NCBI GenBank assembly: GCA_001828605.1 | Contig: MHZB01000030.1 | Span: forward strand, 1 to 45,548 | Length of the DNA stretch: 45,548 nucleotides | Source of the DNA: Planctomycetes bacterium RIFCSPLOWO2_12_FULL_50_35 | GTDB taxonomy: Bacteria; Planctomycetota; Brocadiia; Brocadiales; Bathyanammoxibiaceae | Reading direction: 5' to 3' | Shown here: positions 1,450-45,548 of the stretch, one piece after another | Numbering within the stretch: the stretch's first letter is position 1 | How the letters are laid out: every line of letters starts with the position of its first letter | Translations under genes and position numbers: made by a program | Notes under the pieces: model-generated | What the model was told of the DNA's origin: nothing | The model's database searches: none | The model's input: the letters and a program-made list of their open reading frames with translations, nothing else

Positions 1450-1612
1450 AGACCCCTGAAAAAATCTGCATAACGGTCCTTCTGTCGGAAACGTAGGGGC
1501 GAGGTCGCCTCGCCCACAATAAGGGCGGGGCCGCTCGCAGCGGTCGCACCGCCCCGTCCCTACAAATCGTTCAGAATGGCAATGTACTCTTAGTAGACTT
1601 TTTCAGAACTCT
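1450..1612. repeat. MITE-like intergenic unit with terminal inverted repeats and internal hairpins
   Basis: Left end GAGACCCCTGAAAAAATCT, right end reverse complement AGAGTTCTGAAAAAGTCT; internal hairpin GGGCGAGG-TCG-CCTCGCCC. Confidence 0.6.
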
Positions 1613-1622
1613 CTTTGTGTAG

Positions 1623-1672
1623 CGTGCGAGTTTATCTCGCACGTTTAGCGTGCCGGACATGCTGGCACGCTA
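1623..1672. repeat. Two adjacent hairpins downstream of pdxJ
   Basis: CGTGCGAG-TTTAT-CTCGCACG and AGCGTGCC...GGCACGCT, just past the pdxJ stop. Confidence 0.6.
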
Positions 1673-26799: not shown

Positions 26800-26905
26800 A
26801 ATGGTCGAGATTGCTCGACTTAGCAGGGCAAACCCATGCAGAGCAAGCTCTGCCACTACAATTTAAACAGGGTAGCCAAACCAAGTTTTTCAAAGGTCTC
26901 TATAG
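26800..26905. repeat. Hairpin/TIR-type repeat between pdhA and pdhB
   Basis: TCGAG-ATTG-CTCGA; GCAGAG-CAAG-CTCTGC (26838-26853); end TTTTTCAAAGGTCTC matches the TIR of the element at 36532. Confidence 0.65.
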
Positions 26906-30213: not shown

Positions 30214-30283
30214 CGCAGGTCTTTAGACCTGCGTTCTGTGCCCTATAATGCTCACGGTAGGGGCGAGGTTACCTCGCCCCTAC
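30214..30283. repeat. Two strong hairpins upstream of pdhC
   Basis: CGCAGGTC-TTTA-GACCTGCG (30214-30233); GTAGGGGCGAGG-TTA-CCTCGCCCCTAC (30257-30283). Confidence 0.8.
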
Positions 30284-36531: not shown

Positions 36532-36740
36532 GAGACCTTTGAAAAGGCTCCAGATGTCATTCCCGCGGAAGCGGGAATCTATGGATTCCGTGTCGAGCAC
36601 GGAATGACATAGACGAAACATCTTGTAGGACTTGATTTATCGTAGGGGCGAACGGCCGTTCGCCCTACCTGGCGGATGTGATAAGTCGCGCCCTACAATC
36701 GAGATGAAATATACAAAATCCAGGGCTTTTCAAAGGTCCC
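36532..36740. repeat. MITE-like unit with terminal inverted repeats between mlaF and mlaD
   Basis: Left GAGACCTTTGAAAAG, right reverse complement GGGACCTTTGAAAAG; internal ATTCCCGC-GGAA-GCGGGAAT, ATTCCGTG-TCGAG-CACGGAAT, GTAGGGGCGAACGGCCGTTCGCCCTAC. Confidence 0.85.
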
Positions 36741-38475: not shown

Positions 38476-39171
38476 ATGCGTTATAACAGAAGGATTAATC
38501 CGTTGTTTGTAGTTGCGTTAGCTCTTGGTCTTTGTTTCCTTACTTCATGCGCGGCGAAGCCCCATGAGGAGACGGGCTTCCTAGACAATTATTCGGATAT
38601 GAAACAGACCCAAAATTTCCATCGGTTTTATATTGAACCAGGCGTCGACTTCAAGGCGTATAAGAACGTAATTATCAGACCCGTCAACACTTCCTATATG
38701 CCCGAATTTAAGTGGTATGACGTAAAATACGACGAAAAGGAGTTAAAGGAAATTACCAATTATATAGAGCAGGAGTTTGCCCGTGCATTGGGGAAGTCCT
38801 ATCTTATCGTTAACGGGGGCCATAGCTATACGGGTAAGACGCTGACTCTTGAACTGGCCCTGGTGAAGCTTGCCCCGGTGGATGCCGCAAGCAATGTCGT
38901 ATCCAGCGCCGTTATCATGATGCCGGTTTCCAAGGGAGAGGTCGCTGTAGAGGGGCAGCTGGTGGACGCTGATACCGATAAAACCGTGCTTAAGTTCACA
39001 GATGCAAGATACGGGAAAGATAGTATCGTGAACGTAAAGGATTTTGGAAAGTTCATGCATGCAAAGGATGCCGTAAACGAGTGGGCCAATGAACTCTACG
39101 GCGTCATGCAGGTGGGAGAGGCCGAGAGGGAAGGGTATTTGGGTGGCACCCTTGAACTTAAGCCATGGTAA
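38476..39171 (+). CDS. DUF3313-like lipoprotein
   Basis: LCFLTSCAAKPHEETGFLDNYSDM lipobox and FLxDYS-type start; IIRPVNTSYMPE. Confidence 0.7.
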   Translation: MRYNRRINPLFVVALALGLCFLTSCAAKPHEETGFLDNYSDMKQTQNFHRFYIEPGVDFKAYKNVIIRPVNTSYMPEFKWYDVKYDEKELKEITNYIEQEFARALGKSYLIVNGGHSYTGKTLTLELALVKLAPVDAASNVVSSAVIMMPVSKGEVAVEGQLVDADTDKTVLKFTDARYGKDSIVNVKDFGKFMHAKDAVNEWANELYGVMQVGEAEREGYLGGTLELKPW

Positions 39172-39262
39172 TGATACAACGGCATGACAGTTAAGTGGCC
39201 TTTGATATTCGTATTCAACGGGTATCATGTATCTTCTTGTGTCGGGGTTTAACTTGTTAATT

Positions 39263-39436
39263 CCCTGTAGCTTGCTACAGGGTTTCCGTTGTCATTCCGC
39301 ACTTGATGCGGAATCCAGAATGGTTGTGTTACGGGATATGTTTCTGGATTCCTGCTTTTGCGGCCCCTGATTTAATCAGGGGGACACAGACGAAATTTTA
39401 ATAAATTCTTTAGATACCCTGCAGCTTGCTGCAGGG
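39263..39436. repeat. Cluster of four hairpins
   Basis: CCCTGTAG-CTTG-CTACAGGG (39263-39282), ATTCCGCA-CTTGA-TGCGGAAT (39294-39314), CCCCTGAT-TTA-ATCAGGGG (39364-39382), CCCTGCAG-CTTG-CTGCAGGG (39417-39436). Confidence 0.85.
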
Positions 39437-39470
39437 AGGTTCATTATACTGAAGTCCTGCAGGTTTACAT

Positions 39471-39548
39471 CGGGGCGTGGCTCAGTCTGGCTAGAGCGCG
39501 GCGTTCGGGACGCCGAGGTCGCTGGTTCGAATCCAGTCGCCCCGACCA
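39471..39548 (+). tRNA. tRNA-Pro (anticodon CGG), CCA encoded
   Basis: Acceptor CGGGGCG/CGCCCCG, anticodon arm CGGCG-TTCGGGA-CGCCG, T arm GCTGGTTCGAATCCAGT, ACCA end. Confidence 0.95.
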
Positions 39549-39610
39549 CTCCTTCCCTGAATAATTAAACGCCTGGCACTGGGCGGGAAAACAATACCTT
39601 CCATCCGAGA

Positions 39611-39850
39611 TTATGACTTTTCCCTTATTGCCGAAAGGGTCTTTTCTTTCACACCAATAATGGTCAGACCGACTACTTCTCCTTTTTCTTCACTATACCT
39701 TACAATGACACCTTCTCCCACATCAACACTCACTGCCTTGGTAGGCTCACCTATGCTTATATAAAGGACGTCCGCATCCTCATCATAATCCCAATCTAAA
39801 TTCTCTTTCTTTTCTAAAATCTTTATCGTTTTCATGCGGCTTCTAAACAA
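39611..39850 (-). CDS. DUF2283 family protein
   Basis: WDYDEDADVLYISIGEPTKAVSVDVGEGVIVRYSEEKGEVVGLTIIGV is the DUF2283 pattern. Confidence 0.85.
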   Translation of the reverse strand: MFRSRMKTIKILEKKENLDWDYDEDADVLYISIGEPTKAVSVDVGEGVIVRYSEEKGEVVGLTIIGVKEKTLSAIREKS

Positions 39851-39947
39851 CTATTTTTGTGGAGTCCAGCGACCATGCTGCTGGAGAATTCCCATTGACA
39901 CGGTCAATTGATTCCACAATCTTATCTTTTACTGTTTTAGCAACGGA

Positions 39948-39969
39948 CGTCGGGTGCGGAGACCCGACG
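39948..39969. repeat. Hairpin abutting the argC stop codon
   Basis: CGTCGGGT-GCGGAG-ACCCGACG followed by CTACA; same loop as 42366. Confidence 0.8.
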
Positions 39970-40980
39970 CTACACCAGTCTCTCGGGGAAGCCGAACATG
40001 ACGTTCATGTTCTGGACGGCGATGCCGGAGGCACCCTTTAGCAGGTTGTCTATGGCGGAGATTATTATTACCCTCTTATCCGCCACACGGGCGGAAATGT
40101 CGCAGAAGTTCGTGCCTACCACGTCCTTTGTACTAGGCGGCTCATCATCGGGGTCTTTTATGCGAATGAACGGTTCATCTTTATAAAATGCCTTCATCTT
40201 ATTCGTCACGGCCTCGGTAGTGGTCAAAGACTTCAGTCGTGCGTACACGGTTGACAAGAGTCCGCGGTCCATGGGAACAAGGTGGGGAATGAAGGTGATC
40301 TTTACCTTCGTATTTGTCGCACGCTCCAGAATCTCTTCCATCTCAGGGAGGTGGCGGTGGCCGCCAACCCCGTATGGTTTTAAGTTTTCGTTGCACTCGC
40401 AGTACATGGACTGCTCCGACACGTCCCGGCCGCGCCCGGAGACGCCCGACTTTGAGTCAACAATTATATCCGTCGGCTCTATCAGCTCCCTAACTATAAG
40501 CGGTGCCAGCGCCAGTATGACGGATACAGGATAACAGCCGGGGTTGCTGACCAGCTTTGCCTTTCGTATTTCCTTCCTGAACAGCTCCGGAAGTCCGTAA
40601 ACGGCCTTCTTGAGTCCGTCAGGGTCGGTATGGGGTGACTTGTACCACTTCTCGTATGAATCGGCGTCCTTGAAGCGGTAGTCTGCACTGAAGTCTATCA
40701 CCCTGTAGCCGGCCTTTATATACTTGGGCACGTACTGCATAGCCACGGTTTGCGGAAGTGTAACAAACACCAGCTCAACCCCCTTCGGTATATCCTCAGG
40801 CTCAAGACCCGCCGTCGGAAGGTCTATCTGCTGCTTAAGGGAGGGGAAGATTTGAGATATGCGCGGATTTCCCTCCCGCCTTGCGCCCAGGTAGGCTATC
40901 TCTGCCTCCGGGTGGCGGAGCAGCAGCTTTATCAGTTCCAGACTGGTGTACGCCGTAGCGCCGGCTATCCCTACCTTCAA
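39970..40980 (-). CDS. argC: N-acetyl-gamma-glutamyl-phosphate reductase
   Basis: VGIAGATAYTSLELIKLLLRHPEAEI, LVSNPGCYPVSVILALAPL, SKSGVSGRGRD, FIPHLVPMDRGLLSTVY. Confidence 0.96.
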   Translation of the reverse strand: MKVGIAGATAYTSLELIKLLLRHPEAEIAYLGARREGNPRISQIFPSLKQQIDLPTAGLEPEDIPKGVELVFVTLPQTVAMQYVPKYIKAGYRVIDFSADYRFKDADSYEKWYKSPHTDPDGLKKAVYGLPELFRKEIRKAKLVSNPGCYPVSVILALAPLIVRELIEPTDIIVDSKSGVSGRGRDVSEQSMYCECNENLKPYGVGGHRHLPEMEEILERATNTKVKITFIPHLVPMDRGLLSTVYARLKSLTTTEAVTNKMKAFYKDEPFIRIKDPDDEPPSTKDVVGTNFCDISARVADKRVIIISAIDNLLKGASGIAVQNMNVMFGFPERLV

Positions 40981-41078
40981 TTTTTGTTTCTCCCCAAATT
41001 ACTCAGGCCAATAATAGCACCACCCTTATAAATGTCAATTCAAATGGATTTGGCATCTCTGCAATCCACATTGTAGCT

Positions 41079-41094
41079 GCCCCATTTATGGGGC
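41079..41094. repeat. Intergenic hairpin
   Basis: GCCCC-ATTTAT-GGGGC; loop also found near 14407. Confidence 0.6.
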
Positions 41095-41160
41095 GTTATA
41101 GGCTCGATTTACCAGCGAGTATTCATTTGACACAAGTTTTGGCCTCAGTAGAATTGGGGT

Positions 41161-42258
41161 ATGCATCCGCGCCTTACTGTTTGGTCTCAACAGTTTTGTA
41201 AAAAGTGGTACTTGGGGCTGTTACTTATCCTCTATTGGCTTGGGTGGGGAATTGTACAAGATTGGTTTTTTGAATATGCACGCAAATATATTGAGAATCA
41301 TTCTGGTTCTTTAGTCTTAATTTTGGAGTTCATACTAAGGCATTACCAACTAATACCTTGGCTCTTAATACCTATCGTTATAATAGTATTAATTATATGG
41401 ACATACATTGAGGCTGTACATATTGAGGATAAAACTAAAACAGATAAGCCTTCAAAAGAAAAATCAAAGCTTTCAGTTCAAATTCCTTTTATAAAAATTT
41501 TGCAACCTGTGGGAAGCACAAATTATGAAATATTCATGGCTGCGGAAATATATAATCCTAATCAACGTCCAATGACAATACATTCGAAACTGATAATTGG
41601 GAAAGAAGAAAGAGCAGTTAACCATGAAAATATAATGGGGAAACCAGAAATGGAACTCTTTTTAGAACCAGGGAGGAATCTCAAAAGGCTTCTTATTACA
41701 CGGTATCCTTTTAATCCTTCTGAATTAGAAGCACATTTAAGATGTTACGAAGTAAATGGTACTGAGGTTTTTACAGAGCCCTTAAAGCTACCTGCTTATG
41801 TTGAAAATAAAACAAAAACGGAAGAATCTGATTTATCAAGAATTATAAATGATTTAAAAAGTTATTGGGAGTTGTATTTCAAACTGGTTAAAGAAGTAAT
41901 AGATGAGATAAAACAGTATAATACGCCGCTTCCTGCGGACTGGACGACAGAGAAAGGCCAAAAGCTAAAAGAATATTTAACGGAAATAGATAAGATGTGC
42001 TTGTCTTTAAAGATAAACCGTCGAAGATTGTATTTTTTTAAGCAAAAATGGGGTGGAAGCAATGCAACTTTTAAACATGTCGAATACAAATACTACTATG
42101 TAGATATAAATAGCATTGAGGACATATTAACACATTACAAACTTGCAGAGAGCTATAGAATGCTAAATAAGACACAAAAGACCCTAGAGGATAGTTATCG
42201 TAAGTTCTTGGATGAACTTGCTACATTAGAGACTACTATATCTATAAAGAAAAAATAA
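41161..42258 (+). CDS. AT-rich orphan membrane protein, function unknown
   Basis: 365 aa; TMs LGLLLILYWLGWGIVQDWFF and IPWLLIPIVIIVLIIWTYI then long soluble region; visibly more AT-rich than neighbours. Confidence 0.75.
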   Translation: MHPRLTVWSQQFCKKWYLGLLLILYWLGWGIVQDWFFEYARKYIENHSGSLVLILEFILRHYQLIPWLLIPIVIIVLIIWTYIEAVHIEDKTKTDKPSKEKSKLSVQIPFIKILQPVGSTNYEIFMAAEIYNPNQRPMTIHSKLIIGKEERAVNHENIMGKPEMELFLEPGRNLKRLLITRYPFNPSELEAHLRCYEVNGTEVFTEPLKLPAYVENKTKTEESDLSRIINDLKSYWELYFKLVKEVIDEIKQYNTPLPADWTTEKGQKLKEYLTEIDKMCLSLKINRRRLYFFKQKWGGSNATFKHVEYKYYYVDINSIEDILTHYKLAESYRMLNKTQKTLEDSYRKFLDELATLETTISIKKK

Positions 42259-42333
42259 GTAATCAATTCTTGGAATTGCAATCTGTTAGAGCTAATAAGC
42301 TTACGAAGCGTACCCACGGACCGCTGTTGTGGT

Positions 42334-42689
42334 GTCTGGTCTTTGTACCAGATGTCATTTTTATTCGTCCGGTGCGGAGACCGGACGCTACAGGGATTTA
42401 GTATGGGCTACCCTTGCGGCTGCCCGGCTATGGTCGAACGGACAGGGGCAGGTTCGCCAAAAGCGGATGTGCCTAGGGCATGACGCCTCTGACACAAATC
42501 GGACAGTTACAAATACATTGCAGTTGCAGAGTTTACTCTACTCTAAGTCGAGCAAGCTCGACCACTACACAGCCTTGTGGCAGACAAGCTCGATAAATCG
42601 AGAGCTACAAATCAGTCTTTTTCGGGCAGGTTAAAAACCTGTCCCTACATAAGTGACTCTTTTGTAGGGACAAACCTTTAGGTTTGTCC
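42334..42689. repeat. Dense cluster of at least six hairpins
   Basis: GTCTGGT-CTTTGT-ACCAGAT (42334), CGTCCGGT-GCGGAG-ACCGGACG (42366), GTCGAG-CAAG-CTCGAC (42547), CTCGATAAATCGAG (42589), CAGGTT-AAA-AACCTG (42627), GGACAAACC-TTTA-GGTTTGTCC (42668). Confidence 0.9.
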
Positions 42690-42779
42690 GCAAGCGGCGA
42701 CTGCATCGAGGCATAATCCCCATGATATTTAAACATAACGACTTACGGGCAGGGGCACAACGTATAATATCCTTACGGT

Positions 42780-43823
42780 TCAGCATATCCTGGGCAGGAG
42801 TTCGCCCGAGGCCATGAGCACTACCCGTCTTCCGCCGATGTTCGTCCTGAGTACGACTGAGCCTTTATGGTCATTCGTAACCCGTCCTATCTTGCGGGCA
42901 TCCCTGCCAAGGGGATGTGAGCGCAGGGCATCCACCGCCCTATCTTCGCCGCCGGAGGCAACAAACGAAAGAAACCTGCCCTCGTTTGCTATATACAGCG
43001 GGTCCAGGCCAAGAATCTCACAGGCGCCCCTCACCGGTTCGGGGACGGGGATACTGTCCTCCCAAATCTCAATGCCTACATTCGCAGCGCTTGCAATCTC
43101 ATTGAGCACAGACGATAATCCGCCGCGTGTGGCATCTCTCAGACAATGCACCTCCGCCCCGGATTTGAGGACCTTTTCTACGGGGCCCCACAGGGGGGCC
43201 GAATCACTCTCTACATTCGTCTCAAGATTGAGCCCCTCTCTTGCAACCATAACGGCTATACCGTGGAGGCCGATAGCACCGTTCAGAATTATATTGTCTC
43301 CCGACCTGACCGCCTTAGGCGATATACCTTCATATTCGACCGTGCCGACACCCGTAGTATTAATGAATATCCCGTCCGCACTGCCTTTCTCCACCACCTT
43401 GGTATCGCCCGTTACAACCATTACATCGGCGTCCTTGCAGGCGTTAGAAATTGACTTAACTATCCTGGCCAAATCGGCCATCAGGAACCCTTCCTCTATA
43501 ATGAAAGAAAGGCTGAGCATCAGCGGTCTTGCCCCGCACATCGCCAAGTCGTTCACCGTACCGTGTACCGACAGACTGCCGATGTCGCCGCCGGGGAAGA
43601 AGATGGGTTTTACCACAAAGGAGTCCGTGGTAAATGCAAGTCTGGAATTACCAAGCTCAAAGACTGCGCCGTCGTGGAGCAGTTCAAGATATTTATTTTT
43701 AAGCGCAGGCACGAACAGCTTGCTCACTAACTCGGCGGAAGGGATGCCGCCGCTTCCGTGGGCGAGGGTAATCTTGGCATCAGTAGAGAAGGGGGTGGGG
43801 CATAAGGGGTTGAACTCGGCCAA
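42780..43823 (-). CDS. hypE: Hydrogenase expression/formation protein HypE
   Basis: ITLAHGSGGIPSAELV, FTTDSFVVKPIFFPGGDIG, C-terminal PRIC. Confidence 0.96.
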   Translation of the reverse strand: MAEFNPLCPTPFSTDAKITLAHGSGGIPSAELVSKLFVPALKNKYLELLHDGAVFELGNSRLAFTTDSFVVKPIFFPGGDIGSLSVHGTVNDLAMCGARPLMLSLSFIIEEGFLMADLARIVKSISNACKDADVMVVTGDTKVVEKGSADGIFINTTGVGTVEYEGISPKAVRSGDNIILNGAIGLHGIAVMVAREGLNLETNVESDSAPLWGPVEKVLKSGAEVHCLRDATRGGLSSVLNEIASAANVGIEIWEDSIPVPEPVRGACEILGLDPLYIANEGRFLSFVASGGEDRAVDALRSHPLGRDARKIGRVTNDHKGSVVLRTNIGGRRVVLMASGELLPRIC

Positions 43824-43829
43824 GGTTTC

Positions 43830-44915
43830 TTAAACCCTCCTATAGTTGAAATATGCGGCGCATGCACCCTCGGAGGATACCATGGGCGCACCCAGGGGCC
43901 TTTGGGGCGTACAGCGTGTGCCGAAGGCCGTACACTCATTGGGCTTTTTAAGTCCCTGCAGTATGTAACCCGCAATACACTCAGACGGCTCCTCCACCGT
44001 CAGGCCGTTTAAACTGAACAAACTCTCGGCGTCAAAGTCCCGGTAGGACTCCCTCAGCGCAAGCCCGCTCTTTGGTATGACGCCGATACCCCTCCACTTT
44101 CTGTCCGCCGCCTCAAAGACCTCGTCCACCGCCTGCTGCGCCAGGACGTTGCCCTCCGGTCTTGCCGACCTCCCGTAGGCGTTTTCCACCTCGCACCGTC
44201 CCTCCTCCAGTTGTTTCACCAGCTTATACACGCCGAAGAGGATGTCCAGCGGTTCAAAGCCCGTTATCACTATGGGCACGCGGTATTTCTTCGTAATCCT
44301 CTCGTACCCCCCTTGTCCTATTACGGTGCTGACGTGTCCGGGGGCCAAGAAACCGTTTAGAACCAGGTTGGGCGTAGAGAGGATGGCCTCAAGCGCCGGC
44401 GGGACAAGCACGTGCGCCACCAGGGCGGAGAAATTCTTTATACCGAGTTTTTTGGCCTGGATTATGGCCATGGCAACGGCCGGAGCGGTGGTCTCAAAGC
44501 CTACGGAAAAGAACACCACCTTTCTGTCCGGGGATTCCCTGGCTATCTTTATGGCGTCGAGGGGCGAGTAAAGTATCCTGACGTCCGCCCCCTCCGCCCG
44601 GCTGGTAATGAGGTTCTTCTCGGAACCAGGCACACGGAGCATGTCACCAAAGGAGCAGAATATAACCTCAGACTGCGAGGCTATATACACAGCCTTATCC
44701 AGCATCTCGATGGGGGTTACACATACGGGACATCCCGGACCGTGTATCAGCGTGATTTTGCTGGGGAGGAGCGTGTCTATGCCGAACTTTATTATGTTAT
44801 GGGTCTGGCCTCCGCAGACCTCCATAATAGTCCAATCCCTGTGCAAGATGTCTGTTATTGCCCTTATGTATTTCCGTACAGGCTCAGAGCCCCTGTATTC
44901 ATCAACGTATTTCAC
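43830..44915 (-). CDS. hypD: Hydrogenase formation protein HypD
   Basis: [55 protein letters not shown]. Confidence 0.97.
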
Positions 44916-45139
44916 AGCCCTATCTCTTTCAGTGTATCGAATGCGTCTTTGGCCTTTTCCTCGTCAATCTTGCTTATTGCAAAGCCTATATGCACCAGTA
45001 CCCAGTCGCCCTCCTGCACGTCGTCCAGATATGCAAGACAGGTCTCCCTTTTTGTCCCGCCGAAATCCACGACGCCCATCCTCAGACCGAGGGCGTTGTC
45101 CTCTATCTTTACTACCTTTCCCGGAACGCCTAAACACAT
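44912..45139 (-). CDS. hypC: Hydrogenase assembly chaperone HypC/HupF
   Basis: [36 protein letters not shown]; 4-bp overlap with hypD. Confidence 0.97.
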
Positions 45140-45184
45140 ATTGAGCCTCTAAAAATTCTGCAAGGTTGTACTGCAAACATCTTA

Positions 45185-45390
45185 CGTCTGGTACAGAGAC
45201 CAGACGCTACAAAAGCCTTGTTAAAATCAAGGGCACCGCAGGGGCGTATTGCAATACGCCCCTGCGAGTTTTGCGGACAGGGCTAAAGACCTGTTCCCAT
45301 TTTTACACGCTCGATAAATCGAGCAGAATAACAAGGTGCGTCGAGACGCACCCTACAATATTATCTGTAGCGTGCGAGCCTGCCCGCACG
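45185..45390. repeat. Hairpin cluster between hypF and hypC
   Basis: CGTCTGGT-ACAGAG-ACCAGACG (45185), 30-bp perfect palindrome CGCAGGGGCGTATTGCAATACGCCCCTGCG (45237-45266), GCTCGATAAATCGAGC (45309), GGTGCGTC-GA-GACGCACC (45335). Confidence 0.9.
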
Positions 45391-45466
45391 TAATCATGGC
45401 AACAAGCTGCCACATACATCCTTTGCTCAGAATGACACACGCTGTAAGAACAGCCTTACAACAGTA

Positions 45467-45548
45467 TTATGCCATCTTTACCCCTAGAATGTGTCCGGCC
45501 ACGGCCACCTGCCCAAGAGAGATGCCGCCGTCGTTGGGAGGAATCCTC
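45467..45548 (-). CDS. hypF: Carbamoyltransferase HypF, C-terminal end only
   Basis: Reverse-strand RIPPNDGGISLGQVAVAGHILGVKMA-stop matches the HypF C-terminus (NDGGISLGQ). Confidence 0.9.
   Translation of the reverse strand, partial: RIPPNDGGISLGQVAVAGHILGVKMA

What the first reader, a model, noticed from the sequence alone, without database searches (positions are those of the whole stretch)
42334..42689. Dispersed hairpins with diversified stems but recurring loops and TGTAG/CTACA flanks
Seen: stems differ while pairing and loop words recur. Loop GCGGAG: CGTCGGGT/ACCCGACG (39948) and CGTCCGGT/ACCGGACG (42366). Loop ACAGAG: CGTCTGGT/ACCAGACG (45185). Loop TTTA: CGCAGGTC/GACCTGCG (30214) and GGACAAACC/GGTTTGTCC (42668). 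Loop CAAG: 26838 and 42547. Many hairpins are followed by CTACA or preceded by GTAG. Compensated stem differences with kept loops suggest selection on, or template-based generation of, structure rather than sequence. No feature in the gene list explains this.
Basis: partly seen in the sequence, partly recalled or inferred. Interest (0 to 1): 0.72.

Follow-up and report, generated by a model that had tools for sequence, protein, structure and literature searches.

The report
REP repeats spread by RAYT transposases
The scattered hairpins are short mobile repeats (REPs) of a Planctomycetota bacterium, most likely copied by small single-strand DNA transposases (RAYTs) that need the hairpin shape; this is a new set of members of a known kind of element, not a new system.

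Summary
The window's hairpins carry an unpaired GTAG tag on one side of a 6-9 bp perfect stem; those "followed by CTACA" are the same thing read on the other strand. In 793 kb of the genome, 144 GTAG-tagged perfect hairpins occur; most other tags give 8-45. The CGTCNGRT family named in the finding has 70 copies in the 1.93 Mb fetched. Only 1 lies inside a crude ORF although ORFs cover 79%. Its stems covary far above shuffles. The missing explanation is a set of RAYT genes elsewhere in the genome, several framed by their own hairpin family. The RAYT cognate to the CGTC family was not found in this 90%-complete assembly but is present, framed by these hairpins, in three related MAGs. At eight syntenic sites where relatives hold the repeats, the own genome lacks them, so they move. 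All 34 classifiable head-to-head dimers are heterotypic. Compensated stem classes, BIMEs, RAYT association and REPs inside RAYT genes are all published. New member of a known kind; modest interest.

The parts
42366..42391 (-). REP, CGTC family: GTAG-CGTCCGGT-CTCCGC-ACCGGACG
42329..42358 (+). degenerate CGTC-family partner (GTGG-TGTCTGGT-CTTTGT-ACCAGATG), head-to-head with 42366-42391; together one BIME
   Evidence: direct reading, fold
42547..42568 (-). REP, GTAGTG-GTCGAG-CTTG-CTCGAC family (first 11 bases occur 17 times in the genome)
42590..42610 (-). short REP-like hairpin GTAGCT-CTCGA-TTTA-TCGAG
   Evidence: direct reading; 5 bp stem, weakest item
42624..42648 (-). REP, GTAG-GGACAGGTT-TTT-AACCTGCCC (one mismatch)
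42664..42689 (+). REP, GTAG-GGACAAACC-TTTA-GGTTTGTCC; GTAG tags of this and the previous one face each other
39948..39973 (-). REP, CGTC family (CGTCGGGT); its GTAG supplies the TAG stop codon of the ORF at 39970-40980 (-)
45185..45210 (-). REP, CGTC family (CGTCTGGT, loop CTCTGT)
45335..45356 (-). REP, GTAG-GGTGCGT-CTCG-ACGCACC family (frames RAYT L205 in a Ca. Brocadiales MAG)
45367..45390 (+). decayed REP, CGTGCG family
1619..1643 (+). REP, GTAG-CGTGCGAG-TTTAT-CTCGCACG; with the next hairpin to 1674 a heterotypic dimer. Family of the RAYT on contig C66
25304..25327 (+). REP, CGTGCGAG family
26838..26859 (-). REP, GTAGTG-GCAGAG-CTTG-CTCTGC
1493..1515 (+). REP, GTAG-GGGCGAGG-TCG-CCTCGCCC
30257..30283 (.). 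double-foot REP GTAGGGGCGAGG-TTA-CCTCGCCCCTAC (GTAG at both ends)
36642..36665 (+). REP GTAG-GGGCGAAC-GGCC-GTTCGCCC; same stem as the REP inside the RAYT gene on contig C59
14429..14450 (-). REP, GTAGTT-GCTCGA-TTTA-TCGAGC (family seen near the RAYT on contig C63)
41073..41094 (+). REP, GTAGCT-GCCCCA-TTTA-TGGGGC (same family)

Best explanation
The hairpins are GTAG-type repetitive extragenic palindromes (REPs), often paired head-to-head as BIMEs/REPINs, belonging to about ten families in one Planctomycetota genome. Each family is most likely the substrate of its own RAYT (TnpA-REP), a HUH/tyrosine single-strand endonuclease. Shown here: tag, stem, loop, copy number, intergenic placement, covariation, RAYT genes framed by matching families, and presence or absence at syntenic sites. 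Inferred from experiments in other species: the RAYT reads the GTAG tag plus the folded single-stranded hairpin, including loop bases and perfect pairing in mid-stem, cuts nearby and moves the REP or dimer. Because pairing and loop matter more than the stem letters, copies with a one-sided stem change are poor substrates, while copies with a compensated stem can found new subfamilies that spread. This gives fixed tags and loops, and stems that differ in a compensated way.
For: GTAG tag beside the stem. Five RAYT genes by PF01797 and about nine loci by NF047646, with families beside them: CGTGCGAG at C66, GGCAGGGC at C38, GGGCGAAC at C59. CGTC-family RAYT in three relatives: L207 (CGTCCGAT upstream, CGTCTGGT downstream), L208 and L221; these fall in one part of the RAYT tree, and the L205/L213 and L002/L220 pairs have alike REPs. 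Covariation above shuffles and slid controls. 1 of 70 copies in crude ORFs. Eight empty syntenic sites. 34 of 34 classifiable head-to-head dimers heterotypic. Published: mid-stem mismatches and loop changes impair cleavage by the Stenotrophomonas TnpA-REP (PMC8266576); orthologous RAYTs are flanked by different REP classes (PMC3686654).
Against: The RAYT cognate to the CGTC family was not found in this assembly (89.6% complete), so for that family the link rests on relatives. No cleavage or transposition was measured in this phylum. Several families in the window (for example GTAG-GGACA, GTAGTG-CTTG) have no RAYT assigned. Selection on an RNA role of the hairpins could add to the conservation of pairing.
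Confidence: 0.92

Rival explanations
1. Hairpins work as RNA: intrinsic terminators or mRNA 3'-end stabilisers, and compensated stems reflect selection on the transcript.
For: Strong intergenic placement; one stop codon supplied by a tag (39970); 12 terminator-like sites in 39000-45548 against 6.1 (sd 2.8) in shuffles, one of them the REP at 42329.
Against: Most REPs listed lack a T run after the stem; the conserved GTAG on one side is not explained; hairpins sit beside RAYT genes by family and are present or absent at syntenic sites. No Rfam match above a cut-off except a tRNA.
Confidence: 0.1
2. Compensated stems are made in one step by template switching within the hairpin (quasi-palindrome correction), independent of the transposase.
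For: All four Watson-Crick pairs occur at stem pair 5; perfect stems dominate (48 of 70 own copies, 52 of 66 in loci of relatives).
Against: Copies with one or two non-Watson-Crick pairs are common (22 of 70 own). Stem type goes with dimer role (CGAT against NGGT), as expected for inherited subfamilies. No orthologous site with an in-place double change was found.
Confidence: 0.12
3. Unrelated chance hairpins plus degenerate copies of one fixed repeat.
For: Some hairpins in the scan (for example 9192, 14133) lie in ORFs and look like chance.
Against: 56 against 0-1 anchored matches; covariation reached by 0 of 500 shuffles.
Confidence: 0.01

Closest known systems
GTAG super-family of REPs (Di Nocera 2013, PMC3733652)
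   Same: Unpaired GTAG at one end, 6-9 bp stems, short loops, subfamilies with alternative complementary stem residues, inverted dimers often heterotypic, intergenic, TAG stop codons supplied by the tag, several families per genome, also reported in Planctomycetes.
   Different: The stem and loop sequences seen here (for example CGTCNGRT-CTCYGY) and this host lineage were not seen in the parts of the text read; its figures and supplements could not be checked.
REPtron / TnpA-REP group 3, Stenotrophomonas (PMC8266576, PMC3686654)
   Same: 8-9 bp perfect stem directly beside GTAG; cognate RAYT framed by its REPs; orthologous RAYTs carry different compensated stem classes; DHLH and WQ motifs.
   Different: CGTC-family RAYTs show Y motifs YIVNNP/YVLNNP rather than YI[VI]ANP and were not placed in a published subclass here; 6-base loop; no biochemistry.
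TnpA-REP subclass 2.4 with double-foot REPs and REPs inserted in the transposase gene (Quentin 2018, PMC6006769)
   Same: The GTAGGGGC...GCCCCTAC repeats and the RAYTs on C81 and C59: in-frame palindromes between HUH and Y motifs, NH[LF]H, WQ, YxINNP-like Y motif.
   Different: Only further members; extended here to many Planctomycetota RAYTs.

Membership tests
GTAG REP super-family | unpaired GTAG at the 5' side of a palindrome | tested here: met
GTAG REP super-family | many dispersed, mainly intergenic copies | tested here: met
   70 copies of the CGTC family, 1 in crude ORFs covering 79% of sequence
GTAG REP super-family | inverted dimers (BIME/REPIN) | tested here: met
   20 own and 16 relatives' head-to-head dimers
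GTAG REP super-family | association with a RAYT gene framed by the same REP | tested here: met
   CGTC family: L207, L208, L221 in relatives, not in the own assembly; other families in the own genome
GTAG REP super-family | HUH motif and catalytic-type tyrosine in the RAYT | tested here: met
   PDHLH and YIVNNP/YVLNNP in L207, L208, L221; NF047646 over cut-off for all three
GTAG REP super-family | single-strand cleavage of the REP by its RAYT | not testable with these tools
   needs biochemistry
CGTC-tagged REP super-family (for the CGTCNGRT hairpins) | CGTC is an unpaired tag outside the stem | tested here: not met
   here CGTC is the paired base of the stem, after GTAG
intrinsic terminators | GC stem followed by a run of T | tested here: not met
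   only isolated REPs, such as 42329 (+), are followed by T runs
Rfam families | score above a curated cut-off | tested here: not met
   only a tRNA in the window

The most novel reading that the evidence does not exclude
New REP specificities arise in place: after a mutation in one arm, template switching within the hairpin copies it to the other arm, so that a genomic copy changes stem in one step and the RAYT then spreads the new class; the heterotypic dimer is kept because two identical hairpins would make a long unstable cruciform.
Probability: 0.12. Interest if true: 0.5.

Novelty: new member of a known kind. Interest (0 to 1): 0.22.

Why it matters
It removes an apparent mystery: the compensated hairpins are mobile repeats with a known kind of transposase. 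It adds several RAYT-REP pairs from uncultured Planctomycetota, including one family whose REPs are in a genome where its RAYT was not found. The strict CGAT + NGGT heterodimer, with the RAYT sitting between the same two hairpin types in L207, offers a testable reason for heterodimers, which the literature says have no obvious explanation.

Tried and rejected
Taking the CGTC letters as the CGTC-tagged super-family: rejected, since these bases are paired and preceded by GTAG. A shared loop TTTA as a sign of kinship: rejected for 30214 against 42668, different families. Finding the CGTC-family RAYT in the own genome: nothing framed by these REPs among the RAYT loci; the own site syntenic to L186 (C88) holds no RAYT. 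RAYT genes with in-frame palindromes at one site looked new, with 12-13 bp stems that synonymous shuffles rarely or never reach, but a literature check showed it published as subclass 2.4. An orthologous REP with an in-place compensated change: the only candidate (L198 against C89:18645) has a different context and was not accepted. Scans of plasmids and viral contigs for RAYT relatives gave little.

Full report
What was checked. The window is contig C30 of a 1.99 Mb, 122-contig assembly, 89.6% complete. Read on the right strand, most share one layout: an unpaired GTAG directly beside, or within 1-2 bases of, the stem. "Followed by CTACA" is the same tag seen from the other strand. In 793 kb of the genome, 144 perfect hairpins carry GTAG; other tags give 8-45, and TAGG gives 86 because it overlaps GTAGG. 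A listing shows about ten families.

The family of the finding. On the minus strand 39948, 42366 and 45185 read GTAG-CGTC-N-G-[GA]-T-CTCYGY followed by the complementary arm. The anchored pattern GTAGCGTC-N14-GACG occurs 56 times against 0-1 for permuted versions. With a filter on tag, stem base and loop that does not look at the stem's upper half, 70 own copies and 66 copies in loci of relatives were kept; 48 and 52 have perfect stems. On 55 distinct sequences, 94.8% of pair cells are standard; the covariation score is 0.286 against 0.135 (sd 0.013), and 46 cells are changed on both sides against 18.4 (sd 4.1); slid controls give 0.02-0.12. Pair 5 takes C-G, G-C, U-A and A-U; pair 7 takes G-C and A-U. 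One copy in 70 lies inside a crude ORF of at least 120 codons, though such ORFs cover 79% of those contigs. Shuffle controls do not correct for shared descent, so the covariation reflects a few subfamilies as well as independent changes.

What moves them. Pfam PF01797 finds five genes in the own genome and NF047646 finds about nine RAYT loci, some broken or fragments. Several are framed by hairpins of a family found elsewhere in the genome: CGTGCGAG at C66, GGCAGGGC at C38, GGGCGAAC at C59, GGGCGAGG at C64. No RAYT in the assembly is framed by the CGTC family. A scan of GTDB genomes for the family finds 29 stretches, mostly MAGs of Planctomycetota or Ca. Brocadiales. In three of these genomes a RAYT is framed by CGTC-family REPs: L207, L208 and L221. 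The three lie in one part of a RAYT tree, with a long-branch CGCACCC pair inside it; other RAYT pairs with alike REPs also group, such as L205/L213 and L002/L220. Support at the deeper forks is moderate.

Evidence of movement. Relatives' contigs align with the own genome at 65-85% identity. At eight places with matching sequence on both sides (L179/C99, L181/C120, L186/C88, L191/C82, L193/C42, L199/C50, L201/C66, L202/C92) the relative holds CGTC-family REPs and the own genome does not. The L179/C99 empty site is clean by eye, with a roughly 30-base duplication flanking the insert; at L186/C88 the relative has the whole RAYT with its two REPs and the own genome has none.

Dimers. Head-to-head dimers pair a CGAT-type hairpin with an NGGT-type hairpin in all 19 own and all 15 relatives' classifiable cases, against about half expected. 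In L207 the RAYT lies between these same two types, so a dimer may be a RAYT-less form of the full unit. The polarity relative to the gene is not constant (L208 has the other order), so this remains an inference.

Comparison with what is known. GTAG REPs with subfamilies of alternative complementary stems, heterotypic dimers, intergenic placement and TAG stops are described (PMC3733652). Orthologous RAYTs flanked by different REP classes are described in Pseudomonas and Stenotrophomonas (PMC3686654). For a group-3 enzyme, mid-stem mismatches and a loop change impair cleavage and the base of the stem is tolerant (PMC8266576). Double-foot REPs and in-frame REPs inside the transposase gene are the mark of subclass 2.4 (PMC6006769). 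All match what is seen here. The explanation of compensated stems by transposase recognition is taken from those experiments, not shown in this organism.

Limits. The assembly is incomplete; 1.93 of 1.99 Mb was read. ORFs were called crudely. Family borders for the GGGC group are approximate.

Noticed in passing
L005:1174-1737 (own C81), L063:211-771 (own C59), L216, L217, L223, L229, L231-L234, and many of L236-L252: RAYT genes of one clade carry GTAG palindromes or inverted REP pairs in frame between the HUH motif and the FK helix, at one site, with different stems and in different reading frames; synonymous shuffles rarely reach such stems. Known as subclass 2.4 (PMC6006769).
   Followed up: yes
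own contigs C38, C44, C48, C57, C64, C70, C110 and others: A second palindromic repeat (GGCTTCGRCGGTGAGC...TTCGACAGGCTCAG...CGGTTCGGCTGAGG) sits at the same point beside the loop of CGTC-family REPs in about nine copies: REPs may be its insertion target.
   Followed up: partly
36555-36609, 39290-39317: TGTC-tagged hairpins with ATTCC stems and 4-5 base loops, two of three with a CCA tail (ATTCCCGC-GGAA, ATTCCGTG-CTCGA, ATTCCGCA-CTTGA), resemble the CGTC REP super-family, so both super-families seem present.
   Followed up: no
39263-39282 and 39417-39436: Two hairpins near tRNA-Pro with the same loop CTTG and one compensated difference (CCCTGTAG/CTACAGGG against CCCTGCAG/CTGCAGGG).
   Followed up: no
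own C95 15512-15916 (L003): A RAYT flanked by untagged CCATTGAC/GTCAATGG palindromes, an atypical REP or TIR type; a related stretch lies near window 39893.
   Followed up: no
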